DNA of 64,000 nucleotides from Sphaerotilus microaerophilus (GTDB taxonomy: Bacteria > Pseudomonadota > Gammaproteobacteria > Burkholderiales > Burkholderiaceae_C). A program made the position numbers and the translations under genes. The notes under the pieces were generated by a model. That model was not told the DNA's origin. It did no database searches and saw only the letters and a list, made by a program, of their open reading frames with translations. Below, one piece after another: positions 36,708 through 52,977 of this stretch (positions are counted from its first letter, which is position 1; each line of letters starts with the position of its first letter). Location: positions 4,216,001-4,280,000 of the forward strand of contig NZ_AP025730.1 of assembly GCF_023734135.1 (NCBI RefSeq), in the 5' to 3' direction.

Positions 36708-37835
36708 TCAGCGCTTCACGCCCGTGATGCCGATCTCCACGCGGCGGTTCGGCTGCAGGCAGTCGGTGAGCTGCGGGGTCTGGCGCTGGCCGGGGCACTG
36801 CACCACCGGGTCGGCGGAGCCCTTTCCCGCAGCGGTGATCTTCGTGGTGACACCCTTGCGCTCCAGGTAGGCCTTGATCACGTCGGCGCGGTCCTGCGAC
36901 AGCTGGGCGTTGTAGGCCTCGGTGCCCAGGCGGTCGGTGTAGCCGACGAGCTCGATCTGGTCGACGCGCTCGTACACCTTGTTCAGCCGCGTCACGAGCT
37001 GGTCGAGCTGGCCACGCCCGCCGGGCAGCAGGTCGGCCTCGCTGCGGCGGTCGAAGGCGAAGAGCACGCTGGCGCCGAGGATGATGGTCTCCTTCACCAC
37101 CGGCGGCGGGGGCGGCACCGGGGCAGGCGGCGGGGGAGGAGGTGGTGGTGCCGGCGGCTCGGCACGACGGCCCGCGCCGGTCTCGAAGTCGAGCGGATCG
37201 GGCTGGTCGCAGCTCAGTGCGCCCGCGCTGGCGGCACCCACCAGGTCCTCGGCGATCTGCACGTAGGGCTTGGCGTGCCGCCAGCCCTGCTGGTTCTGCT
37301 CGTTGCCGGCGTGCACCAGTTCCACCTCGGCGCAGGCCACCTGCTGCTGCACGCAGGCCCAGCCGGCACCCTTCTTCAGCGCGCCGGTGGTGGTCCAGAG
37401 GTCGTCACGCAGCTTGAGCGCATCGTTGACCAGCGGCGTCTGGAAGGCAGGGTTGGCCGCATCCCGCGGATTGGCGCCGCTGGCCAGGTAGCTGGTGATG
37501 GCCTCGGACTGCCTCAGCGCCTCCTGCGGGAAGGCCGAGCGGTCGTTGCGGGTGTACTCGTGGAAGCTCACGTCCAGCCAGCACTGCGCCTTGGCGATGC
37601 TGTAGCTGCGCAGCGGCTGCTTGCCCGTGGCGTTGAGCGCACGGATCGCCTCCTGCTGCTTCTGGTAGCCCTGGTGATCGGCGGCCACGCTGCCGTCGGT
37701 CTGGCTGCCGCGGTTCGAGAGGTCGGCCGCCCCCGCGGCCGCTGTCAGGCCTGCGGCGGTCAGTCCGAGCAGGACGGCCCTGCGGACCAGGGTGGGCCGC
37801 AGGGAGAAGGAAGAAGTGGCGTCGAGGAGTCGCAT
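36708..37835 (-). CDS. OmpA-family peptidoglycan-binding protein of the giant-protein operon
   Basis: A 375-residue exported protein with a signal peptide at residues 1-36. A helical N-terminal domain (40-225) contains several cysteines and an Asn-Glu-Gln-Asn-Gln-Gln-Gly-Trp-Arg-His segment. A proline-rich spacer follows (about 235-258), then an OmpA C-terminal domain (270-375) with Gly-Tyr-Thr-Asp-Arg-Leu-Gly, Leu-Ser-Gln-Asp-Arg-Ala and Asn-Arg-Arg-Val-Glu-Ile for peptidoglycan binding. It lies 23 bases after the barrel gene and is the third gene of that operon. A role in tethering the surface assembly to the cell wall is inferred. Confidence 0.85.
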   Translation of the reverse strand: MRLLDATSSFSLRPTLVRRAVLLGLTAAGLTAAAGAADLSNRGSQTDGSVAADHQGYQKQQEAIRALNATGKQPLRSYSIAKAQCWLDVSFHEYTRNDRSAFPQEALRQSEAITSYLASGANPRDAANPAFQTPLVNDALKLRDDLWTTTGALKKGAGWACVQQQVACAEVELVHAGNEQNQQGWRHAKPYVQIAEDLVGAASAGALSCDQPDPLDFETGAGRRAEPPAPPPPPPPPAPVPPPPPVVKETIILGASVLFAFDRRSEADLLPGGRGQLDQLVTRLNKVYERVDQIELVGYTDRLGTEAYNAQLSQDRADVIKAYLERKGVTTKITAAGKGSADPVVQCPGQRQTPQLTDCLQPNRRVEIGITGVKR

Positions 37836-37858
37836 GGTGAGGGATTCCGGGTCGGGGC

Positions 37859-40800
37859 TCAGCGCGGCAGGCTGCGGTTGACGGCCGGGTTGCTGCCCTC
37901 GAAGAGGTCGGCGTCGAACTTGAAGCGCAGGCGCAGGTAGGCGCCGCGGGCGGTGTAGTCGCTGGACAGGTCGCGGTCGCTGAAGCCGGTGACGTTGTAG
38001 CCTGCCGACAGCCAGAGGTTGCTGCGCAGCAGGTAGCCAAGCTCGGCGCCGACCGAGTGCTGGCGCGCACTGCCGTCCTGGCCGCTGGCCCGGCCGGTCA
38101 TCACTGCGGCCTGCAGTCCCAGGTCGATGTTCTCGGTGACGTCGTAAATCAGCCGGCCGCCCAGCAGCCAAGCGGTGTAGCGGTCACTGCCGCCGCCTTC
38201 GGTGTTGGGGTACTGCTCGGCCACGCGCTTGGCTGCCAGCCGGGAGGACCACCACCAAGGGCGACTCGGGTGTCCGTTGAACTGCACGGCGCCCACGTGC
38301 ACGCGTCGCCACTCCTCCGTGGCGTTGATGTTGCTTTCGGCCTTGTATTCGTACTTGCCGAGCGCATCGAGCCGGTTGTGGTCCACCGGCCGCCAGGCCA
38401 GGCCGAACTGCAGGCGGTCCTGCCAGCCATCGGCCTTGGCACCATGGTTGTCGGTGGCCAGGTAGTAGTTGCGTGCCAGCGCAGTCCAGTCACGGTCCAG
38501 CTTGCGCGCCACGGTGACGGTGCTCAGCCAGCTGTCCTGCACGCTGGGCGGCGTGACGCCGGCGGTGCCATCGGGCGTGTCCAGGCGGCGCCACTCCAGC
38601 CGGGCGCTGGCCTTCCACCACTCGCTGGCGGTGTAGTCCACCCCGCCGGTGAGCGCCGTGGCGTTCTGGCCGCTGCCGGTCAGGATCTTCAGCCGCTCGG
38701 CGCCGGTGTGCAGCAGCACGCCGTCCGTGAGGTGCCAGGCGTTGCGCAGGCCGGAGGCGATCTGCGCGCCGCGGCCGTCGCTGGCATCGCGCAGGCGGTA
38801 CTCGCTGAACACCGCGCCGCCCTCCATGTAGGCGGAGTCGATGCCGAAGGCCACCGCGCTGCTGTGGCCGGCGCTGTCGAGCGCGTAGCGCGAGGCCAGC
38901 CCGGTCTGCGACTCGGCGCGCGCATACAGCCGCGTGCGCTCGGCCGCCTGCAGACCCACCAGCAGCTCGCTGCGCCGGCGCGAATCGCCGTCGATCGAGG
39001 CCTCGTGCTGCGCCGCGACCGTCACCTGCGGGTTGACCTGGTAGGTCGCGCCCACGAAGGCCGTGGTCGCCTCCAGGTCCGGGACGGCGCCGGGCGCCAC
39101 GCTGGCACTGAGGGCCGAGGCATTGTTCAGGTTGATCAACGTGCTGCTGCCGGCGCCGCTGAAACCGCCGCCCGAGCCGGCACCGAAGTAGCTGCCCGGA
39201 TCCGGGTTGGCGGCGATGCTGGCGGTGGAGCCGGCTAGGCGGCCGCGCTCCTGCATCTGCCGCAGGCCGCCACCGACGACCAGGGCCGGCGTGACCTGCA
39301 CCTTCGCCCCGAGCGAGACGCCGTTGCGGCTGGCGTCGGTGGTCAGGTCCTCGGTGCGCTGGGCCTCGGCTTCGAGCGACACGCGCTCGCTGACCGGCAG
39401 CGACGCGCTGGCGCCGCCCTGGCGCGTGCCGGGCTGCACGCCCGCCGCACGGTTGGCAAATTCGGCATCGGCCTGGTTGAAGAAGGCACGCGCCTTGAAG
39501 GACTCGCCCGCGTGGTTCAGTTCCACCCGGGCCGCCCGCCCGTTGGTGGTGTCCAACGGCGCGGTCACTGGCGAGGGCACGACCAGCGCCAGCGCCGCCA
39601 GGTTGGCCTCGGTGTAGGCCAGCTCGGCGGTCAGCGTGGTCCTGGGCGTCAGCTGCACGCCCGCGTTGACGCTGGCCAGCCGGAAGGGCGAGGCCGGGTT
39701 GCGGTCCACCACCAGGCTGCCACCCACCGTGGCGCGCTCGCCGAGGTTGATCTGGCCGTCCGCGCCGGCCAGCCAGAAGGCCTCACCGCCCTGGTCCACC
39801 TCGTAGCTGACGCGCAGGCTGATCGGGTTGCCGTTGGCGTCAATGCTGGCCAGCGGGCGCGTCAGCAGGATGCGGCCGCTGAAGGGCTCGAAGCTGTAGT
39901 CGTTCAGCCGCGCCAGCGCCGTCACCGACAGGATGGTGTTGAGGTGGTTGCGGTCGCGCACCACGATCTCCACCTTCTCGCTGTTCTCCAGCGCACTGGT
40001 GTTGCTGACCGCAAAGGGCCCGGAGGTACCGTTGGCGGCCACTTCCTCCACGACCTGCTTGAGCGTGTCGCGGCTGATGAAGACGTTGCCGAAGCCCTCG
40101 GCGCGCTCGACGTGGCCACGCACCCCGGTCACCGTGCGGTTGTAGACGCCCAACTGGCGCAGCCGGTTGCCCGCCACCACGCCGCCGCCGGCGGCCTGGG
40201 CAAAGCCATCGCCGGTGGCGAAATCGCCGTAGAGCAGGTAGTTGCGCCGCTGGTCGATGCGCACGAAGAGCTTGGACGAGCTCTTGGCCTCGAAGCCCTT
40301 GACGGCGCTGTCGCCATAGACCGGGTAGAACTCCTCGGGCCGGATGTCGCGCAGCAGGCGGGCACGGGTTTCCTTGTCGCTGTCGTAGGCCAGGGTCAGC
40401 AGCGCATCGCCGCGGATCTTGCCCTTCAGGAACAGCGCCGCCCGGCCGGCCACGTTGCCGCGCCCGTCGTCGAAGCGGCGGCTCCACTGCGTCAGCTCGG
40501 TCTCGAAGCCGTCTTCCAGCCTTGCGGGCGCCACCGCGCTGTCGTAGCGGCGGCGGGTCGTGCCGATCACACCCTCAATCAAACCGGCGGCCACCATCTC
40601 GCGCAGGTCGGGCGCGAACTCGATCGTGCCGTCCACCGTCGCCGCACCGGCGGTGAGGCGCAGGCGGACGTCGCCCGGCTGGGCCGGCGCCACCAGGCTG
40701 AAGCTGGCCTCGCCGTCGACCACCTTGAGCTGCGTGCCGGGCACGCGCCGGTCGGCGTCCTTGTGCGTAGGGCCAAATTCGTCGGTGGGCGCACCCGCCA

Positions 40801-41278
40801 TCTGCAGCCGGGCACCGAGCGCGGCGCCATCGTGCTCGATGGTAACCAGCACCGGCGCCTTCAGCGGCGTGCCGTCACGGCCCATCACCTTGACCTTCAC
40901 GAGCACCGGCGTCACGCCGTCGGCCGGGGCACCGGCACCGTGCACCTCCACCTTCAGCTGCGCGACCTCGGCGTTGCCGGCGTAATTGCCGGTCAGCACC
41001 GCGGCGGGCGGCGTGCCGGCCGGTTCGGCCAGCACGGGACGGTAACGATGGCCGGGGCTACCGGGGCTACCGGGGCTGCCAGCGTCGCCGCCCAGCGCCG
41101 CGGAGGTCTGGGCCAGGGCGGGCGCCCAACCGGCACAGGTACCGGCGCAGACACAGGCCGCCGCCCAGGCCAGGCGGCGCAGCGCAACCTCCGGCCGGCG
41201 CGTGGCCGGGATGGATCGGATCGAATTCAAGGAACGGGTCCGCCCTGCACGGGAGGACGGGGACATGTGCTTGCTCAT
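37859..41278 (-). CDS. Large outer-membrane-barrel-like protein of the giant-protein operon
   Basis: A 1,139-residue exported protein. The start at 41278 has an AGGAGG ribosome site; the leader ends at Ala-Leu-Ala-Gln near residue 57. Residues 85-225 look like one or two Ig-like domains. Residues 270-520 hold a conserved segment (Tyr-Gly-Asp-Phe and Tyr-Ser-Phe-Glu-Pro-Phe-Ser-Gly-Arg-Ile-Leu-Leu-Thr-Arg-Pro). The rest (520-1139) is a run of alternating amphipathic strands rich in Tyr/Trp, with the last strand ending in Lys-Phe-Asp, as expected for a beta-barrel. It starts 16 bases after the giant gene. Export or anchoring of that protein is plausible but inferred. Confidence 0.78.
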   Translation of the reverse strand: MSKHMSPSSRAGRTRSLNSIRSIPATRRPEVALRRLAWAAACVCAGTCAGWAPALAQTSAALGGDAGSPGSPGSPGHRYRPVLAEPAGTPPAAVLTGNYAGNAEVAQLKVEVHGAGAPADGVTPVLVKVKVMGRDGTPLKAPVLVTIEHDGAALGARLQMAGAPTDEFGPTHKDADRRVPGTQLKVVDGEASFSLVAPAQPGDVRLRLTAGAATVDGTIEFAPDLREMVAAGLIEGVIGTTRRRYDSAVAPARLEDGFETELTQWSRRFDDGRGNVAGRAALFLKGKIRGDALLTLAYDSDKETRARLLRDIRPEEFYPVYGDSAVKGFEAKSSSKLFVRIDQRRNYLLYGDFATGDGFAQAAGGGVVAGNRLRQLGVYNRTVTGVRGHVERAEGFGNVFISRDTLKQVVEEVAANGTSGPFAVSNTSALENSEKVEIVVRDRNHLNTILSVTALARLNDYSFEPFSGRILLTRPLASIDANGNPISLRVSYEVDQGGEAFWLAGADGQINLGERATVGGSLVVDRNPASPFRLASVNAGVQLTPRTTLTAELAYTEANLAALALVVPSPVTAPLDTTNGRAARVELNHAGESFKARAFFNQADAEFANRAAGVQPGTRQGGASASLPVSERVSLEAEAQRTEDLTTDASRNGVSLGAKVQVTPALVVGGGLRQMQERGRLAGSTASIAANPDPGSYFGAGSGGGFSGAGSSTLINLNNASALSASVAPGAVPDLEATTAFVGATYQVNPQVTVAAQHEASIDGDSRRRSELLVGLQAAERTRLYARAESQTGLASRYALDSAGHSSAVAFGIDSAYMEGGAVFSEYRLRDASDGRGAQIASGLRNAWHLTDGVLLHTGAERLKILTGSGQNATALTGGVDYTASEWWKASARLEWRRLDTPDGTAGVTPPSVQDSWLSTVTVARKLDRDWTALARNYYLATDNHGAKADGWQDRLQFGLAWRPVDHNRLDALGKYEYKAESNINATEEWRRVHVGAVQFNGHPSRPWWWSSRLAAKRVAEQYPNTEGGGSDRYTAWLLGGRLIYDVTENIDLGLQAAVMTGRASGQDGSARQHSVGAELGYLLRSNLWLSAGYNVTGFSDRDLSSDYTARGAYLRLRFKFDADLFEGSNPAVNRSLPR

Positions 41279-41294
41279 GCTGCGCCCTCCTGGT

Positions 41295-43586
41295 TCACGG
41301 TTGACGGGCCGGCGGCTGGGTGGCGCCGGACGAGGTCGGCGTCTGCGACACCGGGGTGTTCAGAGTCTGGCCGGTGGCCGTCTGGCCGGGGTCGGACGGT
41401 GGCGCCTTGCCACCGTCGCGCCGAGGCTTGACGGCCCCAGGCTCGCCCTGCCCGGCCGCATCGCCACGCTGGTCGGCACTGTCGGTCGCCTGCTGCGGCG
41501 CGGTGACGCGCTTGCCGTCGAACTTCAGCACCCGGCCACCCTGCTTCTCGGTGTCGAGTGCGCCGGTGTCGCCGCGCGCGCGCCGCGCCTTGACCTGCTC
41601 GGTCACGGTGGGCGAGCAGCTGCCCTCGATGAAGTCGGCCCGGTGCAGCTCGCCGTTCTTCAGGTCGAGGAACAGGCTGCCCGCGTCGCCCGCGTTGCGG
41701 CTGGAGCTGGTGACCAGGCGGCTGCCGCGCGGCAGCGTGGTCTGGTCAACCACCAGCACGTGGGTGCGTGGCGGCAGGCCGCAGTGGCTGTACTTGCCTT
41801 CCACGTCGGTGACGAAGCTGGTGCCGTCCTGCAGGTACAGGCGCACGCCGGGGATGCCGGGCTCCTCCGCGTCCTGCATGTGATTGTGGTTGCAGTCGCT
41901 GTAGACCTTGCCGACCACGCAGGCCTCGTTGGCGAAGACGCCGCCGGTCACCTGCACGCGGTGCTGCGCCTCGTTAGAGCACACCTCGCCGCGCGCCGCG
42001 GTGCAGTTGCCGCCCGGCTGGCTGGTGGCCCGGGCGCGGTTGATGCCGGTGCCCTGCTGCGCCCCCACACCCACGCGCACCCGGTAGCTCAGCACCTGCT
42101 GCGCGCCCGGCGCCATCGCCTTGAGCGTGAAGCGCAGCACCGGGCCCGGCTTGCCAGTCGGGTCGGTGAGCGTCACGCCGTCGAGCTGCGCGGTGCCGTC
42201 GATGTAGCGCAGGCCCGCGGGCAGCGTGTCGACCAGCTCGATGGTGTTGAGCACGCCCACGCCACTGTCGCTGCGCTTGACCGTGATGGTGTAGCGCATC
42301 GAGTCGCCCACCTCGGCACGGCTGCGGTCGCCGGTCTTGGTGACGAACAGCGCCGGACGCACCGCGGCGTCGAGCGGGATGTGGTTGTTCACCACGTCCG
42401 GCCCGGCGGTCGGGTTCAGCGGCATGCGCAGGTAGTACACCGTGGACTGGCTGCCGGTGGGTGCAGCGTTCTGCGCCTGCACCGTGCACACCCCACCAAA
42501 TGCCGCATTGCTGCACCCCCCCGGGATGGCAAGTGCACCCGCTGCGGGCGGGATCTCGCTGCTCAGCGCGTAGCCGGCCGGCGGCGTCACCCGCAGCTGG
42601 TACTCGGCCGTGCCCGGGCAGCCCGCCGGCACCGGCGAGTTCAGCAGCAGGCTGTAGCCGCCGTCGATGCCACCTGTGCCCACCGTGGTGGTGACGGCGT
42701 TGATACCCCCTACCACGCACTGGGTCGGCACCAGGGCACCTGCAGCGGTCAGCAGTTCCACCTTCGCACCGGCCAGCGGCTGGCGCGTGTCGGCGGCGTA
42801 GACCACGCCGGCCGGATCCAGCGGCAGGTTCTGGTTGGTGCGCGTGCGTCCACCCGCCGGGATGGTGATGCCCTGGATGACCCCGCCCGGCACCACGCCG
42901 CTGGACGGGTCGGCGCTCGGGTCGTTGCCACCCGCCGGGTCGGCCGAGATCGGCCGGCCGTAGTAGGCGCCGTTCACCGCATCGCGGAAGCGCACCGAGT
43001 AGCCGTTGCCAGGCGTCAGGCCATCGACGCGGTAGCTGCCATCGGCGGCGCTGCGCGTGGTGGCCACCAACCTGCCGCTGGCATCGAGCACCTCGACCAC
43101 GATACCGGCCAGCACGTTGTCGCCGCCGTCGAATACGCGGTTGTGGTTCTGGTCGATCCACACCCGACCGCTCACCGCGCCGGCCTGCTGCACGGGCGTC
43201 GGGTCAGTCGCGCCGTTGTTGCCCGTGTGCGTGGGCAGATCGGGCTCGCCGCCACCAGTCACCGCGACCTGGTTGACGAGGGCAGTGCCGGCAGCGATCG
43301 TGCAGGTGCCGCTGGCATCGGGCGAGCGGCAGGCGCCCGCGGCCACGTCCACCAGCAGGGTGATGTCGGGCGCACGCGTCGCCACAGCGCCGCTGGCCGC
43401 CGCAATCACTTCGCTGCGGGTGCAACGGGCCACTGCATTGCCAAGCAGCGTCGCGCTGCAGTCCCAACCGCTGCCGGTGGGCACGGCCGCGACCGTCATG
43501 CCAGCCGGCAGGCGGTCGACGACGGTGTAGCTCGCACTGCTGGCCGCGTCACCGCGGTTGGACACCACGATGGTGTAGGTGCCCAC
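41295..43586 (-). CDS. C-terminal part of the giant repeat protein, displaced by a frameshift
   Basis: About 763 residues that continue, in another frame, the protein read from 52977. They begin in the middle of a DUF11 domain (Gly-Thr-Tyr-Thr-Ile-Val-Val-Ser-Asn-Arg-Gly), with no leader or ribosome site, so this is not an independent gene. Later parts are an SdrD B-like domain (Gly-Arg-Val-Trp-Ile-Asp-Gln-Asn-His-Asn), further DUF11-type domains, a second SdrD B-like unit (Lys-Val-Tyr-Ser-Asp-Cys-Asn-His-Asn), then a low-complexity Gln/Thr/Pro tail. Removing one base at 43589-43594 joins the halves into one frame of 3,893 codons plus stop. Confidence 0.85.
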   Translation of the reverse strand: MGTYTIVVSNRGDAASSASYTVVDRLPAGMTVAAVPTGSGWDCSATLLGNAVARCTRSEVIAAASGAVATRAPDITLLVDVAAGACRSPDASGTCTIAAGTALVNQVAVTGGGEPDLPTHTGNNGATDPTPVQQAGAVSGRVWIDQNHNRVFDGGDNVLAGIVVEVLDASGRLVATTRSAADGSYRVDGLTPGNGYSVRFRDAVNGAYYGRPISADPAGGNDPSADPSSGVVPGGVIQGITIPAGGRTRTNQNLPLDPAGVVYAADTRQPLAGAKVELLTAAGALVPTQCVVGGINAVTTTVGTGGIDGGYSLLLNSPVPAGCPGTAEYQLRVTPPAGYALSSEIPPAAGALAIPGGCSNAAFGGVCTVQAQNAAPTGSQSTVYYLRMPLNPTAGPDVVNNHIPLDAAVRPALFVTKTGDRSRAEVGDSMRYTITVKRSDSGVGVLNTIELVDTLPAGLRYIDGTAQLDGVTLTDPTGKPGPVLRFTLKAMAPGAQQVLSYRVRVGVGAQQGTGINRARATSQPGGNCTAARGEVCSNEAQHRVQVTGGVFANEACVVGKVYSDCNHNHMQDAEEPGIPGVRLYLQDGTSFVTDVEGKYSHCGLPPRTHVLVVDQTTLPRGSRLVTSSSRNAGDAGSLFLDLKNGELHRADFIEGSCSPTVTEQVKARRARGDTGALDTEKQGGRVLKFDGKRVTAPQQATDSADQRGDAAGQGEPGAVKPRRDGGKAPPSDPGQTATGQTLNTPVSQTPTSSGATQPPARQP

Positions 43587-46500
43587 GTCCCCCCTCGGTG
43601 AACACCGCCGGGCTGTGCGTCTTGGCGACCACCAGGTCCGGCGCGCCCTGCACCTGCACCGTGAGGGTGGCGGTGTCGCAGGCCGTGGCGAGCTCGACGC
43701 TGCACAGCCGGTAGCTCAGCGCATAGCGGCCCGATGCCGTACCAGCGGGCACCTGGATGCGCCCGCTGGCGTCCAGGCTCACACCCACCAGCCCGCCAGC
43801 GTCGGTGAGCGTCGCCGTCACCGCTGGCACACTCGCCACCACGCCGCCCACCCGGTCGTTCGGCCAGACGTCGATCGCGCCGCCGGTGGATGCCACCGTG
43901 ACCAGGCCGTCGTCCACTGCGTCGATCAGCTTCGCGCTGGCCGTTGCGGTGTTGTTGGCCAGGTCGGCATCGTTGAGCGCACCCGTGGTGCCGGTGAGCG
44001 TGACGCTGGTATCGACCTCCGCCGTCCCGCCCGGTACGCCCGGCGCGGTGTAGCTGAAGCGGCAGACAATTGCCTCGCCAGAGGCCAGCGTTGCCGGCGC
44101 CACCGGGGCGCAGGTGACCGCGCTGATGCGACCGACGCTGGCGTTCGGCACGCAGGTCGGCGACGTTGCTGCCGCGCCGCCAGCCGCATTGCGGCAGGTG
44201 AGTGCAACGTCGGCCACCACCTGGCCCGGGCTGAGCACGGCCGGCAGGCCGCTGATCACCGCGGCCATGTCCGCGCTCTGCGCCGTCACGATCAGGGTGG
44301 CGGTGTCGCAGGTAGTCTGGTTCGGGCTCGGGGCGCAGACTTGGTAGTTGACCGTGCAGGTCCCGCTGGCCGGTACGTCGTAGGTCGCCGTGCCGCTGCC
44401 GCTCACGCCCGGGTTGGCGCAGCTGCCGCCCGCAACGATGCTGAACACGCTGCCCGACGGGTACTGGTCGTTGGTCGCCAGGTTGCTGCTCTGGCCCTTG
44501 CTGCCGCCGGGGTGGGCGGCGCTGTCGTCCACCGCGTCGATGACCGTCGCGCTGGCGGCCGCGTTGTTGTTCGCCGGGTTGCTGTCGTTGCTCGCCCCGG
44601 TGCTGCCCGCCACGCCGACGCTGGTGGTCGGCTCGTCGGCCCCGCCCTGGCTGCCGTTGATCGTCAGGTTGAAACTGCAGACGATGGCCGCTCCCGCCGC
44701 CACGTTGCCGCCCGGCGTCGGGCTGCACACCGGCGTGCTCGCCGTCGCTCCCGTCACCGTGCCCAGCGCGCAGGCTGCCGCCGTGGCGCTGCTGCTCGTC
44801 GACACGTTCGTGCAGGTCAGCGTCACGCCGTTGACCACCTGGCCCGGGCGAACCTGGCTCGGCAGGCCGCTGATGGCCGCGGCCATGTCCGCGCTCTGCG
44901 CCGTCACGATCAGGGTGGCGGTGTCGCAGGTGGCCTGGTTCGGGCTCGGGGCGCAGACCTGGTAGTTGACCGTGCAGCTGCCGGTGTTCGGCACGTCGTA
45001 GGTCGCCGTGCCGCTGCCGCTCACGCCCGGGTTGGCGCAGCTGCCGCCCGCAACGACGCTGAACACGCTGCCCGACGGGTACTGGTCGTTGGTCGCCAGG
45101 TTGCTGCTCTGGCCCTTGCTGCCGCCGGGGTGGGCGGCGCTGTCGTCCACCGCGTCGATGACCGTCGCGCTGGCCGCCGCGTTGTTGTTCGCCGGGTTGC
45201 TGTCGTTGCTCGCCCCGGTGCTGCCCGCCACGCCGACGCTGGTGGTCGGCTCGTCGGCTCCGCCCTGGTTGCCGTTGACCGTCAGGTTGAAGCTGCAGAC
45301 GATGGCCGCTCCCGCCGCCACGTTGCCGCCCGGCGTCGGGCTGCACACCGGTGTGCTCGCCGTCGCTCCCGTCACCGTGCCCAGCGCGCAGACTGCCGCC
45401 GTGGCGCTGGTGCTCGTGGACAGGTTGGTGCAGGTCAGTGTCAAGCCGTTGACCACCTGGCCCGGGCGAACCTGGCTCGGAAGGCCGCTGATCACCGCGG
45501 CCATGTCCGCGCTCTGCGCCGTGACGGTCAGGGTGGCAGTGTCGCAGGTGCCCTGGTTCGGGCTCGGGGCGCAGACCTGGTAGTTGACCGTGCAGCTGCC
45601 GGTGTTCGGCACGTCGTAGGTCGCCGTGCCGCTGCCGCTCACGCCCGGGTTGGCGCAGCTGCCGCCCGCAACGATGCTGAACACGCTGCCTGACGGGTAC
45701 TGGTCGTTGGTCGCCAGGTTGCTGCTCTGGCCCTTGCTGCCGCCGGGGTGGGCGGCGCTGTCGTCCACCGCGTCGATGACCGTCGCGCTGGCCGCCGCGT
45801 TGTTGTTCGCCGGGTTGCTGTCGTTGCTCGCCCCGGTGCTGCCCGCCACGCTGACGCTGGTGGTCGGCTCGTCGGCTCCGCCCTGGTTGCCGTTGACCGT
45901 CAGGTTGAAGCTGCAGACGATGGCCGCTCCCGCCGCCACGTTGCCGCCCGGCGTCGGGCTGCACACCGGCGTGCTCGCCGTCGCTCCCGTCACCGTGCCC
46001 AGCGCGCAGACTGCCGCCGTGGCGCTGGTGCTCGTGGACAGGTTGGTGCAGGTCAGTGTCAAGCCGTTGACCACCTGGCCCGGGCGAACCTGGCTCGGCA
46101 GGCCGCTGATCACCGCGGCCATGTCGGGAGGTGAGGTCACGTTGAGGGTCGCCGTGGCCTGGTCGCAGGCCGCCGGGGTCTGCGCCGGGTTGCTGCAGAT
46201 CTGGTAGGTCAGCACGTAGCTGCCCACCGGCGTGGCCGCGCTGCTGCTGAGCACGCCGGTGGCGGTGTTGAAGCTCAGCCCGGTCACTGCCGGCAGGCTG
46301 ATCTGGCTGAGCGTCACATTGCTGGTGCTGGCCAGCGCCGTGCCGACCTGGTCGTTGCCGAGCACGCTCAGGCTGGTGGCGGTGCCCGCCGGGGTGCTGA
46401 CCGCCGCGTCGTCGATCGCGTCGAGGGTCTCGACGCTGTCGGTCGCGCTGTTGTCCGCCGTGCTGCCCGCCGGTTCGTTGGCCGCGCTGGTGGTCGCGGT

Positions 46501-49500
46501 CACCGTGACGCTGGTGGGCACGGCGTTCGTGCCGCTGTTGGCCGTGCCCGGCTGGGTGTAGCTGATCGGGCAGGTCAGCGTCGCGCTCGCCGGCAGGCTG
46601 GCCGCGCTGCCGCTGCTGGCCGTGCAGGCTCCGACCGTGACGGCCACGGCTGCGCCGGTGCTGTCTTGCGCGCTGGCGGTGCAGGTGGCGTTGGTGGCTG
46701 CGCCGCCACCGCTGTTGGTGCAGGTGATGCTGCCGCTGACGCTGGCGCCCGGGCCGGTCACGCTCGGAGCGATCGCCACCACCGGGGTCATGTTCGGGCC
46801 GGCGGTGACGTTGATCGTCGCCGTGGCCTGGTCGCAGGCCGCCGGGGTCTGCGCCGGGTTGCTGCAGATCTGGTAGGTCAGCACGTAGCTGCCCACCGGC
46901 GTCGCGGCCGTGACGGCCATCGTGCCGGTGGTCGTGCTGAAGCTCAGCCCGGTCACTGCCGGCAGGCTGATCTGGCTGAGCGTCACATTGCTGGTGCTGG
47001 CCAGCGCCGTGCCGACCTGGTCGTTGCCGAGCACGCTCAGGCTGGTGGCGGTGCCCGCCGGGGTGCTGACCGCCGCGTCGTCGATCGCGTCGAGGGTCTC
47101 GACGCTGTCGGTCGCGCTGTTGTCCGCCGTGCTGCCCGCCGGTTCGTTGGCCGCGCTGGTGGTCGCGGTCACCGTGACGCTGGTGGGCACGGCGTTCGTG
47201 CCGCTGTTGGCCGTGCCCGGCTGGGTGTAGCTGATCGGGCAGGTCAGGGTAGCGTTCACCGGCAGACTCGCTGCGCTGCCGCTCGATGCGGTGCACGCGC
47301 CGACCGTCACGGCCACGCTGGCGCCCGTGCTGTCGAGGGCGCTGGCCGTGCAGGTGGCGCTCGTGGCTGCGCCGCCGCCGCTGTTGGTGCAGGTGATGCT
47401 GCCGCTGACGCTCGCGCCCGGGCCGGCGATCGTCGGGGCGATGGCCACCACCGGGGTCATGTTGGGGCCGGCGGTGACGTCGATCGTCGCCGTGGCCTGG
47501 TCGCAGGCCGCCGGGGTCTGCGCCGGGTTGCTGCAGATCTGGTAGGTCAGCACGTAGCTGCCCACCGGCGTGGCCGCGCTGCTGCTGAGCACGCCGGTGG
47601 CGGTGTTGAAGCTCAGCCCGGTCACTGCCGGCAGGCTGATCTGGCTGAGCGTCACATTGCTGGTGCTGGCCAGCGCCGTGCCGACCTGGTCGTTGCCGAG
47701 CACGCTCAGGCTGGTGGCGGTGCCCGCCGGGGTGCTGACCGCCGCGTCGTCGATCGCGTCGAGGGTCTCGACGCTGTCGGTCGCGCTGTTGTCCGCCGTG
47801 CTGCCCGCCGGTTCGTTGGCCGCGCTGGTGGTCGCGGTCACCGTGACGCTGGTGGGCACGGCGTTCGTGCCGCTGTTGGCCGTGCCCGGCTGGGTGTAGC
47901 TGATCGGGCAGGTCAGGGTAGCGTTCACCGGCAGACTCGCTGCGCTGCCGCTCGATGCGGTGCACGCGCCGACCGTCACGGCCACGCTGGCGCCCGTGCT
48001 GTCGAGGGCGCTGGCCGTGCAGGTGGCGCTCGTGGCTGCGCCGCCGCCGCTGTTGGTGCAGGTGATGCTGCCGCTGACGCTCGCGCCCGGGCCGGCGATC
48101 GTCGGGGCGATGGCCACCACCGGGGTCATGTTGGGGCCGGCGGTGACGTCGATCGTCGCCGTGGCCTGGTCGCAGGCCGCCGGGGTCTGCGCCGGGTTGC
48201 TGCAGATCTGGTAGGTCAGCACGTAGCTGCCCACCGGCGTGGCCGCGCTGCTGCTGAGCACGCCGGTGGCGGTGTTGAAGCTCAGCCCGGTCACTGCCGG
48301 CAGGCTGATCTGGCTGAGCGTCACATTGCTGGTGCTGGCCAGCGCCGTGCCGACCTGGTCGTTGCCGAGCACGCTCAGGCTGGTGGCGGTGCCCGCCGGG
48401 GTGCTGACCGCCGCGTCGTCGATCGCGTCGAGGGTCTCGACGCTGTCGGTCGCGCTGTTGTCTGCCGTGCTGCCCGCCGGTTCGTTGGCCGCGCTGGTGG
48501 TGGCCGTCACGGTGACGCTGGTGGGCACGGCGTTGGTCCCGCTGTTGGCGCTGCCCGGCTGGGTGTAGCTGATCGGGCAGCTCAGCGTCGCGCTCGCCGG
48601 CAGGCTGGCCGCGCTGCCGCTGCTGGCCGTGCAGGCTCCGACCGTGACGGCCACGGCTGCGCCGGTGCTGTCTTGCGCGCTGGCGGTGCAGGTGGCGTTG
48701 GTGGCTGCGCCGCCACCGCTGTTGGTGCAGGTGATGCTGCCGCTGACGCTGGCGCCCGGGCCGGTCACGCTCGGAGCGATCGCCACCACCGGGGTCATGT
48801 TCGGGCCGGCGGTGACGTTGATCGTCGCCGTGGCCTGGTCGCAGGCCGCCGGGCTCTGCGCCGGGTTGCTGCAGATCTGGTAGGTCAGCACGTAGCTGCC
48901 CACCGGCGTGGCCGCGCTGCTGCTGAGCACGCCGGTGGCGGTGTTGAAGCTCAGCCCGGTCACTGCCGGCAGGCTGATCTGGCTGAGCGTCACATTGCTG
49001 GTGCTGGCCAGCGCCGTGCCGACCTGGTCGTTGCCGAGCACGCTCAGGCTGGTGGCGGTGCCCGCCGGGGTGCTGACCGCCGCGTCGTCGATCGCGTCGA
49101 GGGTCTCGACGCTGTCGGTCGCGCTGTTGTCTGCCGTGCTGCCCGCCGGTTCGTTGGCGGCGCTGGTGGTGGCCGTCACGGTGACGCTGGTGGGCACGGC
49201 GTTCGTGCCGCTGTTGGCCGTGCCCGGCTGGGTGTAGCTGATCGGGCAGCTCAGGGTGGCGCTCGCCGGCAGGCTGGCTGCGCTGCCGCTCGAAGCGGTG
49301 CAGGCGCCGACCGTGACCGCCACGGCGGCGCCGGTGCTGTCTTGCGCGCTGGCGGTGCAGGTGGCGCTGGTGGCTGCGGCCGAGCCGGCGTTGGTGCAGG
49401 TGATGCTGCCGCTGACGCTCGCGCCCGAGCCGGCCACGCTCGGAGCGATGGCCACCACCGGGGTCATGTTGGGGCCGGCGGTGACGTCGATCGTCGCCGT

Positions 49501-52500
49501 GGCTTGGTCGCAGGCCGCCGGGCTCTGCGCCGGGTTGCTGCAGATCTGGTAGGTCAGCACGTAGCTGCCCACCGGCGTCGCGGCCGTGACGGCCATCGTG
49601 CTGGTGGCGGTGTTGAAGCTCAGGCCGGCCACTGCCGGCAGGCTGATCTGGCTGAGCGTGACGTTGCTGGTGCTGGCCAGCGCCGTGCCGACCTGGTCGT
49701 TGCCGAGCACGCTCACGCTGGTGGCCGTGCCCGCCGGGGTGCTGACCGCCGCGTCGTCGATCGCGTCGAGGGTCTCGACGCTGTCGGTCGCGCTGTTGTC
49801 TGCCGTGCTGCCCGCCGGTTCGTTGGCGGCGCTGGTGGTGGCCGTCACGGTGACGCTGGTGGGCACGGCGTTCGTGCCGCTGTTGGCCGTGCCCGGCTGG
49901 GTGTAGCTGATCGGGCAGCTCAGGGTGGCGCTCGCCGGCAGGCTGGCTGCGCTGCCGCTCGAAGCGGTGCAGGCGCCGACCGTGACCGCCACGGCCGCGC
50001 CGGTGCTGTCTTGCGCGCTGGCGGTGCAGGTGGCGCTGGTGGCTGCGGCCGAGCCGGCGTTGGTGCAGGTGATGCTGCCGCTGACGCTCGCGCCGGGGCC
50101 GGCCACGCTCGGAGCGATGGCCACCACCGTCGTCATGTTGGGGCCGGCGGTGACGTCGATCGTCGCCGTGGCCTGGTCACAGGCCGCCGGGCTCTGCGCC
50201 GGGTTGCTGCAGATCTGGTAGGTCAGCACGTAGCTGCCCACCGGCGTCGCGGCCGTGACGGCCATCGTGCCGGTGGTCGTGCTGAAGCTCAGACCGGCCA
50301 CTGCCGGCAGGCTGATCTGGCTGAGCGTCACATTGCTGGTGCTGGCCAGCGCCGTGCCGACCTGGTCGTTGCCGAGCACGCTCACGCTGGTGGCCGTGCC
50401 CGCCGGGGTGCTGACCGCCGCGTCGTCGATCGCGTCGAGGGTCTCGACGCTGTCGGTCGCGCTGTTGTCTGCCGTGCTGCCTGAGGGCTCGTTGCTCGCG
50501 CTGGTCGTGGCCGTCACCGTGACGCTGGTGGGCGCCGCGTTGGTGCCGCTGTTGGCCGTGCCCGGCTGGGTGTAGCTGATCGGGCAGCTCAGCGTCGCGC
50601 TCGCCGGCAGGCTGGCCGCGCTGCCGCTGCTGGCCGTGCAGGCGCCGACCGTGACCGCCACGGCCGCGCCGGTGCTGTCCAGCGCGCTGGCCGTGCAGGT
50701 GGCGCTGGTGGCTGCGCCGCCGCCGCTGTTGGTGCAGGTGATGTTGCCGCTGACGCTCGCGCCCGGGCCGGCGATCGTCGGGGCGATGGCCACCACCGTC
50801 GTCATGTTGGGGCCGGCGGTGACGTTGATCGTCGCCGTGGCCTGGTCGCAGGCCGCCGGGGTCTGCGCCGGGTTGCTGCAGATCTGGTAGGTCAGCACGT
50901 AGCTGCCCACCGGGGTGGCTGCGCTGCTGCTGAGCACGCCGGTGGCGGTGTTGAAGCTCAGCCCGGTCACACTCGGCAGGCTGACCTGCGTGAGCGTGAC
51001 GTTGCCGGTGTTGGCCAACGCCGTGCCGACCTGGTCGTTGCCGAGCACGCTCACACTGGTGGCGGTGCCCGCCGGGGTGCTGACCGCCGCGTCGTCGATC
51101 GCGTCGATCGTGTCCACGCTGTCGGTCGCGCTGTTGTCTGCCGTGCTGCCCGCCGGTTCGTTGGCGGCACTGGTGGTCGCGGTCACCGTGACGCTGGTGG
51201 GCACGGCGTTGGTGCCGCTGTTGGCCGTGCCGGGCTGGGTGTAGCTGATCGGGCAGGTCAGCGTCGCGCTCGCCGGCAGGCTGGCCGCGCTGCCGCTGCT
51301 GGCCGTGCAGGCGCCGACCGTGACCGCCACGGCCGCGCCAGCGCTGTCCAGCGCGCTGGCCGTGCAGGTGGCGCTGGTGGCTGCGCCGCCGCCGCTGTTG
51401 GTGCAGGTGATGTTGCCGCTGACGCTCGCGCCCGGGCCGGCGATCGTCGGGGCGATGGCCACCACCGTCGTCATGTTGGGGCCGGCGGTGACGTTGATCG
51501 TCGCCGTGGCCTGGTCGCAGGCCGCCGGGGTCTGCGCCGGGTTGCTGCAGATCTGGTAGGTCAGCACGTAGCTGCCCACCGGCGTCGCGGCCGTGACGGC
51601 CATCGTGCCGGTGGTCGTGCTGAAGCTCAGGCCGGCCACTGCCGGCAGGCTGATCTGGCTGAGCGTGACGTTGCTGGTACTGGCCAGCACGGTGCCGACC
51701 TGGTCGTTGCCGAGCACGCTCACGCTGGTGGCCGTGCCCGCCGGGGTGCTGACCGCCGTGTCGTCGATCGCGTCGATCGTGTCCACGCTGTCAGTCGCGC
51801 TGTTGTCCGCCGTGCTGCCCGCCGGTTCGTTGGCGGCACTGGTGGTCGCGGTCACCGTGACGCCGGTGGGCGCCGCGTTGGTGCCGCTGTTGGCCGTGCC
51901 CGGCTGGGTGTAGCTGATCGGGCAGCTCAGCGTCGCGCTCGCCGGCAGGCTGGCCGCGCTGCCGCTGCTGGCCGTGCAGGCGCCGACCGTGACCGCCACG
52001 GCCGCGCCAGCGCTGTCCAGCGCGCTGGCCGTGCAGGTGGCGCTGGTGGCTGCCGACGTTCCCCGGTTCGTGCAAACCAAGCTGCCGTTCACGGTCGAAC
52101 CCGGACCGGCCACCGTCGGGGCGATCGTCACGGCCGCCGTCATGTTCGGTGCCACGAGGATGCCGCCCTGCATGCCGAACAGGCGGGGCAGGTACGCGGT
52201 CCCACCCGAACCGGCCGCAGGGATTTCTCCCCCGAACGCAAAGGTCATTGACGAGACCCCGGCGCTGTAATTGGCTTCTGCTGCCACGGATGCGGGGGCG
52301 GTCGCGAGCGAATAGGTCGGGTAATTGCCGACGGCCGAACAACCGATCAAGGCGTCCGCGGTGGTACACACCTTTGCTCTGAAAGCCACACCGCCGTCGT
52401 AGGCTGTCGCCGACTCGAGCTGGGACCCGGCAATCACCGTGACGGATGGCGGCATGTACTCGATGCGCTCCGTCACCCCACCGGTGATCGAACTCAGGTT

Positions 52501-52977
52501 GCCATCGGTGTCGATGCTGCGCAAGTACACCGGCACATCGATCGGATCCGCGGCCGTTCCCCCCACCGTCACAAAATCCAGCCGGAACACCACCTGGGAT
52601 GCGTTGCTCGCGAGGTTGGGCAGCATCACCTGCCCCTCGAAGTAGCTGGCGCCGGTGGTGTAGCTGGGCGCCTGACTGACCGTCGCGCCGCCACGCAGGC
52701 TCACGACCGTGACCAGCAGGTCGCGGTTGCGGTTGCCCGTTGCAGCCAGATCGCCGGCGGCGATCACGTTGCTGTAGCGGGTCACGCTGCCGACCTGCGT
52801 GCAGTCCGCAGACTGGCAAGCCCACGACGACCACACGAAAGACGCGGCCTCGGCCGACGACCCGAAGGGCGCCACGGCCAACCAGCCCATCGCAGCCAGG
52901 ACGAGACAGCGCGAGGCAAAACACAGAGTGTGCAACCGGCGTCCAGCCCAACGCACCCAAGATCCGAAGTCACCCAT
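43549..52977 (-). CDS. Giant exported repeat protein, N-terminal part
   Basis: A 3,142-residue reading frame. After a long leader (charged start, hydrophobic core to Ala-Glu-Ala-Ala near residue 44) comes a unique domain (45-277), then nine A units of 223 residues, three B units of 206 and one diverged DUF11-like unit. Each A unit combines a DUF11-like Ig domain with a Big_9/cadherin-like domain carrying Val-Leu-Gly-Asn-Asp-Gln, and holds six cysteines; each B unit holds eight. The frame ends soon after a homopolymer slip. The protein is probably surface-exposed, an adhesin or structural filament. Start 52977 is chosen over 53106 because the leader begins there. It heads the operon with the barrel and OmpA genes. 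Confidence 0.88.
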   Translation of the reverse strand: MGDFGSWVRWAGRRLHTLCFASRCLVLAAMGWLAVAPFGSSAEAASFVWSSWACQSADCTQVGSVTRYSNVIAAGDLAATGNRNRDLLVTVVSLRGGATVSQAPSYTTGASYFEGQVMLPNLASNASQVVFRLDFVTVGGTAADPIDVPVYLRSIDTDGNLSSITGGVTERIEYMPPSVTVIAGSQLESATAYDGGVAFRAKVCTTADALIGCSAVGNYPTYSLATAPASVAAEANYSAGVSSMTFAFGGEIPAAGSGGTAYLPRLFGMQGGILVAPNMTAAVTIAPTVAGPGSTVNGSLVCTNRGTSAATSATCTASALDSAGAAVAVTVGACTASSGSAASLPASATLSCPISYTQPGTANSGTNAAPTGVTVTATTSAANEPAGSTADNSATDSVDTIDAIDDTAVSTPAGTATSVSVLGNDQVGTVLASTSNVTLSQISLPAVAGLSFSTTTGTMAVTAATPVGSYVLTYQICSNPAQTPAACDQATATINVTAGPNMTTVVAIAPTIAGPGASVSGNITCTNSGGGAATSATCTASALDSAGAAVAVTVGACTASSGSAASLPASATLTCPISYTQPGTANSGTNAVPTSVTVTATTSAANEPAGSTADNSATDSVDTIDAIDDAAVSTPAGTATSVSVLGNDQVGTALANTGNVTLTQVSLPSVTGLSFNTATGVLSSSAATPVGSYVLTYQICSNPAQTPAACDQATATINVTAGPNMTTVVAIAPTIAGPGASVSGNITCTNSGGGAATSATCTASALDSTGAAVAVTVGACTASSGSAASLPASATLSCPISYTQPGTANSGTNAAPTSVTVTATTSASNEPSGSTADNSATDSVETLDAIDDAAVSTPAGTATSVSVLGNDQVGTALASTSNVTLSQISLPAVAGLSFSTTTGTMAVTAATPVGSYVLTYQICSNPAQSPAACDQATATIDVTAGPNMTTVVAIAPSVAGPGASVSGSITCTNAGSAAATSATCTASAQDSTGAAVAVTVGACTASSGSAASLPASATLSCPISYTQPGTANSGTNAVPTSVTVTATTSAANEPAGSTADNSATDSVETLDAIDDAAVSTPAGTATSVSVLGNDQVGTALASTSNVTLSQISLPAVAGLSFNTATSTMAVTAATPVGSYVLTYQICSNPAQSPAACDQATATIDVTAGPNMTPVVAIAPSVAGSGASVSGSITCTNAGSAAATSATCTASAQDSTGAAVAVTVGACTASSGSAASLPASATLSCPISYTQPGTANSGTNAVPTSVTVTATTSAANEPAGSTADNSATDSVETLDAIDDAAVSTPAGTATSLSVLGNDQVGTALASTSNVTLSQISLPAVTGLSFNTATGVLSSSAATPVGSYVLTYQICSNPAQSPAACDQATATINVTAGPNMTPVVAIAPSVTGPGASVSGSITCTNSGGGAATNATCTASAQDSTGAAVAVTVGACTASSGSAASLPASATLSCPISYTQPGSANSGTNAVPTSVTVTATTSAANEPAGSTADNSATDSVETLDAIDDAAVSTPAGTATSLSVLGNDQVGTALASTSNVTLSQISLPAVTGLSFNTATGVLSSSAATPVGSYVLTYQICSNPAQTPAACDQATATIDVTAGPNMTPVVAIAPTIAGPGASVSGSITCTNSGGGAATSATCTASALDSTGASVAVTVGACTASSGSAASLPVNATLTCPISYTQPGTANSGTNAVPTSVTVTATTSAANEPAGSTADNSATDSVETLDAIDDAAVSTPAGTATSLSVLGNDQVGTALASTSNVTLSQISLPAVTGLSFNTATGVLSSSAATPVGSYVLTYQICSNPAQTPAACDQATATIDVTAGPNMTPVVAIAPTIAGPGASVSGSITCTNSGGGAATSATCTASALDSTGASVAVTVGACTASSGSAASLPVNATLTCPISYTQPGTANSGTNAVPTSVTVTATTSAANEPAGSTADNSATDSVETLDAIDDAAVSTPAGTATSLSVLGNDQVGTALASTSNVTLSQISLPAVTGLSFSTTTGTMAVTAATPVGSYVLTYQICSNPAQTPAACDQATATINVTAGPNMTPVVAIAPSVTGPGASVSGSITCTNSGGGAATNATCTASAQDSTGAAVAVTVGACTASSGSAASLPASATLTCPISYTQPGTANSGTNAVPTSVTVTATTSAANEPAGSTADNSATDSVETLDAIDDAAVSTPAGTATSLSVLGNDQVGTALASTSNVTLSQISLPAVTGLSFNTATGVLSSSAATPVGSYVLTYQICSNPAQTPAACDQATATLNVTSPPDMAAVISGLPSQVRPGQVVNGLTLTCTNLSTSTSATAAVCALGTVTGATASTPVCSPTPGGNVAAGAAIVCSFNLTVNGNQGGADEPTTSVSVAGSTGASNDSNPANNNAAASATVIDAVDDSAAHPGGSKGQSSNLATNDQYPSGSVFSIVAGGSCANPGVSGSGTATYDVPNTGSCTVNYQVCAPSPNQGTCDTATLTVTAQSADMAAVISGLPSQVRPGQVVNGLTLTCTNLSTSTSATAAVCALGTVTGATASTPVCSPTPGGNVAAGAAIVCSFNLTVNGNQGGADEPTTSVGVAGSTGASNDSNPANNNAAASATVIDAVDDSAAHPGGSKGQSSNLATNDQYPSGSVFSVVAGGSCANPGVSGSGTATYDVPNTGSCTVNYQVCAPSPNQATCDTATLIVTAQSADMAAAISGLPSQVRPGQVVNGVTLTCTNVSTSSSATAAACALGTVTGATASTPVCSPTPGGNVAAGAAIVCSFNLTINGSQGGADEPTTSVGVAGSTGASNDSNPANNNAAASATVIDAVDDSAAHPGGSKGQSSNLATNDQYPSGSVFSIVAGGSCANPGVSGSGTATYDVPASGTCTVNYQVCAPSPNQTTCDTATLIVTAQSADMAAVISGLPAVLSPGQVVADVALTCRNAAGGAAATSPTCVPNASVGRISAVTCAPVAPATLASGEAIVCRFSYTAPGVPGGTAEVDTSVTLTGTTGALNDADLANNTATASAKLIDAVDDGLVTVASTGGAIDVWPNDRVGGVVASVPAVTATLTDAGGLVGVSLDASGRIQVPAGTASGRYALSYRLCSVELATACDTATLTVQVQGAPDLVVAKTHSPAVFTEGGRGHLHHRGVQPR
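43589..43594. other. Homopolymer frameshift site in the giant gene
   Basis: Six consecutive C on the plus strand (G on the coding strand) fall inside a conserved DUF11 domain. With five, the coding frame reads Phe-Thr-Glu-Gly-Asp-Val-Gly-Thr-Tyr-Thr-Ile and runs on without a stop to 41295; with six it turns off-frame and stops at 43549. This can be a sequencing error, a fixed mutation or a phase-variable tract. Confidence 0.85.
44268..46121 (-). repeat. Three tandem 618-bp repeats (B units)
   Basis: Three direct repeats of 618 bases (206 codons) encode units beginning Asp-Met-Ala-Ala-Val-Ile-Ser-Gly-Leu-Pro. They are nearly identical, with few base changes, and a fourth, strongly diverged unit follows toward the C-terminus (about 43620-44267). 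Each holds eight cysteines. Confidence 0.9.
46122..52146 (-). repeat. Nine tandem 669-bp repeats (A units)
   Basis: Nine direct repeats of about 669 bases (223 codons) encode the A units. Boundaries recur at 669 bases with small compensated length differences. Units toward the 3' end of the gene are most alike: bases about 46,940-47,793 and 47,609-48,462 match throughout at an offset of 669, pointing to recent duplication or gene conversion. The repeat also creates long spurious plus-strand open frames. Confidence 0.93.

What the first reader, a model, noticed from the sequence alone, without database searches (positions are those of the whole stretch)
36708..52977. Giant Cys-rich repeat protein + barrel + OmpA: a candidate undescribed surface system
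Three exported proteins are encoded in one operon with 16- and 23-base gaps: a giant multi-Ig-domain protein, a barrel-like outer-membrane protein with Ig-like front domains, and an OmpA-type cell-wall binder with a proline-rich spacer. Together they look like fibre, membrane station and wall anchor. No autotransporter, FhaC, type I or type IX secretion partner is visible, so the export route is open. The repeat units have 6 or 8 cysteines each, so disulfide cross-linking into a rigid sheath- or fibre-like layer is conceivable.
Basis: partly seen in the sequence, partly recalled or inferred. Interest (0 to 1): 0.8.

Follow-up and report, generated by a model that had tools for sequence, protein, structure and literature searches.

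The report
Surface fibre with own membrane station
A widespread but apparently undescribed set of three bacterial envelope proteins - a giant repeat fibre, a very large outer-membrane barrel and a cell-wall clamp - is encoded side by side here and as one fused protein in other bacteria, which suggests a self-contained way of putting long fibres on the cell surface.

Summary
The three-gene operon is real. The host matches Sphaerotilus microaerophilus FB-5T, a sheath former. Gaps (16, 23 bases) and Cys counts (6 or 8 per unit) are exact, but in this assembly the giant gene lies in two overlapping frames.

The genes travel together: of the 80 related loci kept, 74 have a giant just upstream of the barrel and 72 an OmpA-type gene just downstream. 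More telling, relatives carry the modules fused: giant+barrel, OmpA+barrel, and all three in one ~2,000-residue chain. The barrel is predicted as an invasin-like Ig domain plus about 36-40 strands; no Pfam or NCBIfam model fits the window's protein above cut-off.

Best reading: a DUF11/CLIPPER-stalk surface fibre with its own outer-membrane station and peptidoglycan clamp. That the barrel also exports the fibre is plausible, unproven. Disulfide cross-linking into a sheath is not supported: Cys pair up within domains, the system occurs in genera not known for sheaths, and it is patchy in the host's own genus. Closest in print: a CLIPPER+OmpA fibrillar adhesin of Acinetobacter. Seven literature searches (three with capped lists) showed no paper on the barrel-containing system.

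The parts
43549..52977 (-). giant repeat protein, first reading frame (3142 aa from ATG 52977; ORF opens at 53106): signal sequence, N-terminal domain, 13 two-domain Ig-like units
52150..52977 (-). signal sequence and N-terminal domain (residues 1-276, 6 Cys); of 20 giants whose N-termini I read, a similar domain was seen by eye only in the Sphaerotilus-group ones (L144, L145, L146); possible distal tip
46129..52149 (-). nine 223-residue units, 6 Cys each
44275..46128 (-). three 206-residue units, 8 Cys each
43589..43594 (-). run of six G at which the giant's open frame changes
41295..43586 (-). giant protein, second reading frame (763 aa): DUF11, SdrD_B-like, DUF11, SdrD_B-like, low-complexity tail
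42018..42347 (-). DUF11 (CLIPPER) domain, homologous to crystal structure 9ifr; Lys, Asp and Asn counterparts present
41607..41930 (-). last conserved SdrD_B-like domain of the giant; marker used for the presence profile
41469..41495 (-). conserved C-terminal linear motif (QQATDSADQ here; consensus about QxTDSANQ)
37859..41278 (-). outer-membrane barrel protein, 1139 aa, no Pfam/NCBIfam family above cut-off
40604..40972 (-). invasin-type (Big_1-like) Ig domain, residues 103-225
37916..40594 (-). predicted beta-barrel, residues about 229-1121, about 36-40 strands
36708..37835 (-). OmpA-type protein, 375 aa
37203..37706 (-). conserved N-terminal domain of the OmpA-type protein (probably helical, not modelled), almost confined to barrel-bearing genomes
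36711..37085 (-). OmpA domain with the peptidoglycan-binding Asp and Arg positions

Best explanation
A surface-fibre system made of three parts. The giant protein is a fibrillar-adhesin-like stalk of about 30 Ig-like domains, each braced by disulfides inside the domain and, next to the base, by DUF11/CLIPPER domains likely to hold isopeptide bonds. Its conserved C-terminal SdrD_B-like domain and TDSANQ tail dock on the barrel protein, whose invasin-type Ig domain and very large barrel form the outer-membrane station. The OmpA-type protein ties the station to peptidoglycan so that the fibre can bear load. Shown: co-occurrence, gene order, fusions, conserved wall-binding residues. Inferred: docking, surface exposure, adhesion. 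Less certain (about 0.35): the barrel is also the export channel, as when stalk and barrel are one chain.
For: Operon and order: giant immediately upstream of the barrel in 74 of 80 loci, OmpA-type gene immediately downstream in 72, both in 67. Of the six without an upstream giant, L042, L072 and L077 have a giant-type ORF downstream by phmmer (L042 weakly, E 2.5e-9), L078 one by eye, and L014 and L031 start at the contig edge. Presence across 60 relatives: barrel and giant C-terminal domain 18 together, 1 giant only, 41 neither (Fisher 2e-14); barrel and OmpA N-terminal domain 15 together, 3 and 1 alone, 41 neither (2e-10); relatedness is not corrected for. Barrel and Ig predictions. Asp/Arg of the OmpA domain in 70 of 70 proteins that cover it, of 73. 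DUF11 to 9ifr, E 7.9e-7. Cys pair covariation.
Against: No experiment. No binding domain is recognised on the giant. In the one-chain forms the OmpA domain lies between stalk and barrel; if it binds peptidoglycan, the stalk must either cross the membrane just before it or stay in the periplasm, and sequence does not say which. Three of 80 loci (L029, L045, L051) have room downstream but no OmpA-type gene; L042 ends inside a giant and cannot be judged. G056 has the OmpA N-terminal domain without a barrel. The window's OmpA protein finds none of the 120 one-chain proteins directly. The giant frame is broken in the host's own assembly. The barrel model is of middling confidence (pLDDT 76.5, pTM 0.71), its fold matches are loose, and its closure was not inspected.
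Confidence: 0.6

Rival explanations
1. The assembly is an envelope scaffold rather than an adhesin: the barrel plus OmpA protein fastens the outer membrane to peptidoglycan and the repeat protein lies in the periplasm or forms a coat, as the Deinococcus SlpA/SDBC layer does.
Against: Stalks of about 30 Ig-like domains would be over 100 nm if extended (my estimate of 3.5-4.5 nm a domain), too long to stand in a periplasm. Giant length, Cys content and N-terminal domains vary strongly between species, as in surface fibres. No S-layer-homology domain is among the Pfam matches of the four window ORFs scanned.
Confidence: 0.2
2. Structural protein of the Sphaerotilus sheath, cross-linked by disulfides.
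For: The host is a sheath former (PMC11087309, passages). Giants of the Sphaerotilus group are richer in Cys, about 25-29 per 1000 residues in the main copies, against mostly 9-17 elsewhere (window 26.8). Sheath genes of this group are said to be not well understood (PMC13386937, passages).
Against: Even, pairwise covarying, apparently intradomain Cys. Genera not known to me as sheath formers have the operon. Five of 13 genomes of the genus lack a full-length barrel, four of them 99-100% complete. The frame is broken in the assembly of a strain that forms sheaths.
Confidence: 0.07
3. The giant leaves the cell by another route and uses the barrel only as a dock, or the barrel is an unrelated porin kept in the operon.
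For: I found no reported export function for the barrel family; stalk and barrel are separate genes in the window and in nearly all loci.
Against: Stalk and barrel are fused in many lineages, and the giant's C-terminal domain is present in 18 of 18 barrel-bearing relatives.
Confidence: 0.13
4. In FB-5 itself the locus is a decaying remnant.
For: Frame change in the giant; open through the same domain in 25 of 25 aligned relatives.
Against: The rest of the giant, both partner genes and near-identical repeats are kept; a slip in a G run can also be a phase switch or an assembly error.
Confidence: 0.15

Closest known systems
Gram-negative CLIPPER (DUF11) fibrillar adhesin B9T28_05395 of Acinetobacter silvestris (PMC12617251; structure 9ifr)
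   Same: [quoted passage not shown] the window's DUF11 domain is a sequence homologue of 9ifr.
   Different: There the OmpA-like domain is in the same chain and no barrel is mentioned in the passages I read; here the anchor is a separate protein and a large barrel protein is added.
All-in-one 'OmpA family / DUF11 domain-containing / conserved repeat domain' proteins of about 2000 aa (e.g. Desulfosudis oleivorans, P0238)
   Same: Same modules: DUF11, SdrD_B-like, OmpA domain, homologous Ig-barrel part.
   Different: One chain instead of three genes; shorter stalk; the OmpA domain is not a close relative of the window's OmpA protein (0 of 120 by direct phmmer). No characterisation found.
Type IX secretion translocon SprA (36-strand barrel, PMC10994853, passages)
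   Same: Very large barrel, comparable strand number; low-scoring fold match (8gl6_A).
   Different: No SprA family match; T9SS is called specific to Bacteroidetes (PMC7463736, abstract in the search listing).
Deinococcus SlpA / S-layer deinoxanthin-binding complex
   Same: Large trimeric barrel tied to the cell wall (recalled); among the top fold matches.
   Different: Different wall anchor and no giant DUF11 partner (recalled); fold match too loose to show kinship.
Inverse autotransporters (intimin/invasin)
   Different: Ig domain before the barrel instead of after it (recalled), barrel about three times larger, no inverse-autotransporter barrel family among the Pfam matches.

Membership tests
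CLIPPER/DUF11 fibrillar adhesin (Gram-negative) | DUF11/CLIPPER domain(s) in a long exported protein | tested here: met
   PF01345, E 3.7e-15, two stretches in the second frame; homology to 9ifr
CLIPPER/DUF11 fibrillar adhesin (Gram-negative) | repetitive Ig-like stalk | tested here: met
   13 repeat units; their Ig-like fold is inferred from sequence, not modelled
CLIPPER/DUF11 fibrillar adhesin (Gram-negative) | recognisable adhesive domain | tested here: inconclusive
   no binding domain recognised in either frame; N-terminal domain not modelled
CLIPPER/DUF11 fibrillar adhesin (Gram-negative) | intramolecular isopeptide bond | tested here: inconclusive
   Lys, Asp and Asn align with those of 9ifr; the paper's Asp number differs by one from my count; bond not shown
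OmpA-type peptidoglycan binder | OmpA domain with Asp and Arg for peptidoglycan | tested here: met
   PF00691 above cut-off; Asp/Arg in 70 of 70 covered, of 73; role of the two residues recalled
Outer-membrane beta-barrel protein | predicted closed barrel of amphipathic strands | tested here: inconclusive
   strands and porin-type fold matches; closure only suggested by alignments that span the first and last strands
Type V autotransporter or inverse autotransporter | translocator barrel sequence family | tested here: not met
   not among the three Pfam matches of the window's protein at E up to 10, nor among the 25 families listed for 32 members (capped list; HMMER filters drop weak matches)
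Type IX translocon SprA | SprA sequence family | tested here: not met
   as above; no NCBIfam match up to E 0.1; the own-genome search for SprA_N was uninformative because its control was silent
Type IX translocon SprA | SprA fold | tested here: inconclusive
   8gl6_A TM 0.20/0.12
Fimbrial usher | usher sequence family | tested here: not met
   [not shown]
Deinococcus SlpA/SDBC | SlpA-like barrel fold | tested here: inconclusive
   [not shown]

The most novel reading that the evidence does not exclude
The barrel family is a new class of outer-membrane exporter: one protein of about 36-40 strands, comparable in size to the type IX translocon but in Pseudomonadota and other phyla, that threads and then anchors its own giant fibre. 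It exists as a one-chain, two-gene and three-gene system, the split system using a C-terminal TDSANQ peptide to recruit the fibre.
Probability: 0.3. Interest if true: 0.88.

Novelty: new variant of a known kind. Interest (0 to 1): 0.68.

Why it matters
A fibre, membrane-station and wall-clamp set found in Burkholderiales and Xanthomonadales and, fused, in several further groups would be a common but unnamed part of the Gram-negative surface. If the barrel exports the fibre it adds a secretion class with an unusually large pore; if not, the fusions still give a clear topology puzzle that one surface-labelling experiment can settle. It would also give a meaning to a large protein family (2119 relatives at E up to 1e-3; where the 120 listed ones carry a name it is mostly 'hypothetical protein').

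Tried and rejected
Sheath hypothesis: rejected as the general role (distribution and Cys pattern). SprA membership: no family match; low TM. Sequence searches of solved structures with the barrel alignments found relatives only of the Ig domain, besides one chance-level hit. Conserved neighbours: clustering the ORFs of the 80 loci gave no widespread further partner besides the three genes; some large clusters look like antisense ORFs of these GC-rich genes, and longest-ORF selection may have hidden real neighbours. Pfam hits on the first giant frame (Glyco_hydro_49, Glucodextran_N, Srbc and two below cut-off) have no stretch that passes on its own and were set aside as compositional. A proline-rich spacer is not a general trait: my pattern found it in 17 of 73 OmpA-type proteins. 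The first AlphaFold model was superseded. Paper searches: seven aimed at this system (searches found nothing; one listed 14 of 14; others listed 15 of 6203, 12 of 429 and 8 of 3326, so they prove little), three on sheaths or SprA (17, 28, 85); open-licence PMC only. Papers: passages only of PMC13386937, PMC11087309, PMC10787695, PMC11224092 and PMC10994853; passages and section 7 of PMC12617251; PMC7463736 only in a search listing.

Limits: the 80 loci are the best 80 of 195 confirmed and include several from one genome (three Massilia species appear twice), so they are not 80 independent genomes. The 40 loci were chosen by me from the hits, and six are the same records as loci. ORFs in my scripts run stop to stop, so lengths are upper bounds. 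The class search (54 of 369 genomes with a match) scored at most two candidates per genome.
Full report
Where it is. The window is part of a 6,058,019-base genome in two contigs with completeness 99.99 and contamination 0.26. These figures match Sphaerotilus microaerophilus FB-5T (6.06 Mbp, chromosome and plasmid, same completeness and contamination; passages of PMC11087309), a sheath former sequenced with PacBio HiFi. The identification is an inference from these matches.

What is there. On the minus strand lie a giant repeat gene (start 52977, stop 41295), a 1139-residue barrel gene and a 375-residue OmpA-type gene, with gaps of 16 and 23 bases. The giant has nine 223-residue units with six Cys each at the same positions, three 206-residue units with eight and one last unit with six. 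Near the C-terminus come DUF11 and SdrD_B-like domains. In this assembly the frame changes at a run of six G (43589-43594) inside a DUF11-type domain. In 25 of 25 relatives in which this domain could be aligned, of 83 distinct giants given to the call, the frame stays open through it. I searched the two pieces apart and mended nothing.

Are the three genes one system? A scan of genome contigs with the barrel alignment confirmed 195 relatives, of which the best 80 were kept: Sphaerotilus, Undibacterium, Janthinobacterium, Massilia, Collimonas, Rhodoferax, Variovorax, Stenotrophomonas, Lysobacter, Xanthomonas and others. A giant lies immediately upstream in 74, an OmpA-type gene immediately downstream in 72, both in 67. 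The six without an upstream giant: L042 (weak), L072 and L077 have a giant-type ORF downstream by phmmer, L078 has one by eye, and L014 and L031 start at the contig edge. The eight without OmpA: L037, L040, L043 and L055 run out of contig, L042 ends inside a giant, and L029, L045 and L051 have room but no such gene. In 60 relatives, barrel, giant C-terminal domain and OmpA N-terminal domain occur in 18, 19 and 16 genomes; barrel and giant domain are shared by 18, barrel and OmpA domain by 15 (Fisher tests, uncorrected for relatedness; weak barrel hits in G002, G008, G010 and G028 and a weak giant hit in G045 were counted as absent). Exceptions are G056 (OmpA domain without barrel) and G050 (part of the giant domain, repeated, without barrel); G020, G040 and G057 have a barrel without the OmpA N-terminal domain. 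In G044 the giant match lies about 6 kb downstream of the barrel and the OmpA-type gene about 1 Mb away.

Fusions. This is the strongest new evidence. One split case, L170, consists of short overlapping ORFs and may be a broken fusion. L065 (Stenotrophomonas humi) shows a fusion inside a group that is otherwise split, without a signal sequence at the joint (by eye). In L159 an OmpA domain and the barrel share one ORF, with the giant a separate ORF. A search with a remote barrel returned 1781 proteins, of which the best 120 were listed: 120 of 120 match the barrel profile, 118 of 120 the giant's C-terminal part, and 83 of 120 carry PF00691 by my count of the listing. Pfam scans of five of them give the order DUF11 and SdrD_B-like, then OmpA, with the barrel last, in the three longest (P0121, P0238, P0225; one DUF11 and all SdrD_B matches are below the curated cut-offs); P0156 lacks the DUF11 match and P0228 both. 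The direct search with the window's OmpA protein matched none of the 120, so the OmpA domain there is the same Pfam family, not a close relative. Named members come from Gammaproteobacteria, Deltaproteobacteria, Desulfosudis oleivorans (Desulfobacterota, recalled) and Nitrospirota.

The OmpA protein. Its Asp and Arg, which bind peptidoglycan in OmpA (recalled), are kept in 70 of 70 sequences that cover them, of 73. Its N-terminal domain (KAQCWLDVSFHEYTRNDRS...) is almost confined to barrel-bearing genomes: 15 of 16. In two loci (L153, L156) the downstream gene keeps this domain but is too short to hold an OmpA domain as well (not scanned).

The giant. A linear motif of the form QxTDSANQ, near variants included, lies 17-72 residues from the C-terminus in 73 of 88 giants, or 68 of 83 once five records counted twice are removed; further variants can be seen by eye in L050, L052, L070 and L072, and in the linker of L065. 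N-terminal domains differ between genera. Cys pattern: of the four Cys positions in the second domain of a unit, the optional two occur together in 17 of the 18 domains that have either (phi 0.96; 51 domains from 12 of 84 proteins searched, 13 of them the window's own, so not independent), which points to a bond within the domain. In the first domain three Cys are invariant; the third in order falls in two neighbouring alignment columns and is missing from both in 6 of 51 domains, through misalignment or real loss, so evenness is not proven for every relative. Main giants of the Sphaerotilus group have about 25-29 Cys per 1000 residues (a second copy, L149, has 18; the partial L003 22), Janthinobacterium about 18-23, most others 9-17, with some short or partial ones up to 23 and three Massilia copies near 5.5. 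The window's DUF11 domain matches 9ifr with Lys, Asp and Asn aligned; the paper's number for Asp differs by one from my count.

How it most likely works. A DUF11/CLIPPER-stalk fibre is displayed at an outer-membrane station that is clamped to the wall. A literature precedent for the role is that DUF11 proteins are held to stabilise cell aggregates in Methanothermobacter (stated in passages of PMC10787695 and PMC12617251). Whether the barrel exports the fibre is open. In the one-chain form the OmpA domain lies between stalk and barrel, so either the stalk passes through the membrane ahead of a retained OmpA domain or the stalk stays inside.

Sheath. The host is a sheath former, but the barrel is missing or only weakly matched in 5 of 13 same-genus genomes, four of them 99-100% complete, and present in genera not known to me as sheath formers, so it is not a general sheath factor. 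A Sphaerotilus-specific use of the Cys-rich stalk cannot be excluded.

Verdict. The system is a widespread, modular, apparently unnamed variant of Gram-negative fibrillar adhesins with a barrel family that I found in no paper. The bolder claim, a new export class, is testable and not excluded.

Noticed in passing
43589-43594 (-): Frame change of the giant gene at a run of six G in the deposited assembly of a strain whose sheath formation is described as easily lost; phase variation, mutation or assembly slip.
   Followed up: partly
L065:1973-13216: Natural in-frame fusion of giant and barrel in Stenotrophomonas humi, keeping the TDSANQ motif in the linker and without a signal sequence there (by eye), inside a group with split genes.
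   Followed up: partly
L159:6603-11690: OmpA domain and barrel in one ORF next to a separate giant: a further partition of the three modules.
   Followed up: partly
   Followed up: no
L153, L156: Downstream partner keeps the conserved N-terminal domain of the OmpA-type protein but is too short for an OmpA domain, suggesting that this domain is the barrel's true partner.
   Followed up: no
35684-36673 (-): A histone-deacetylase-like gene (PF00850) follows the OmpA-type gene on the same strand after a short gap; no such neighbour was seen to recur widely in the related loci.
   Followed up: no
52150-52977 (-): N-terminal domain of the giant resembling, by eye, those of Sphaerotilus-group giants L144-L146 and not seen in the other giants read (20 read); possible tip domain.
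   Followed up: no
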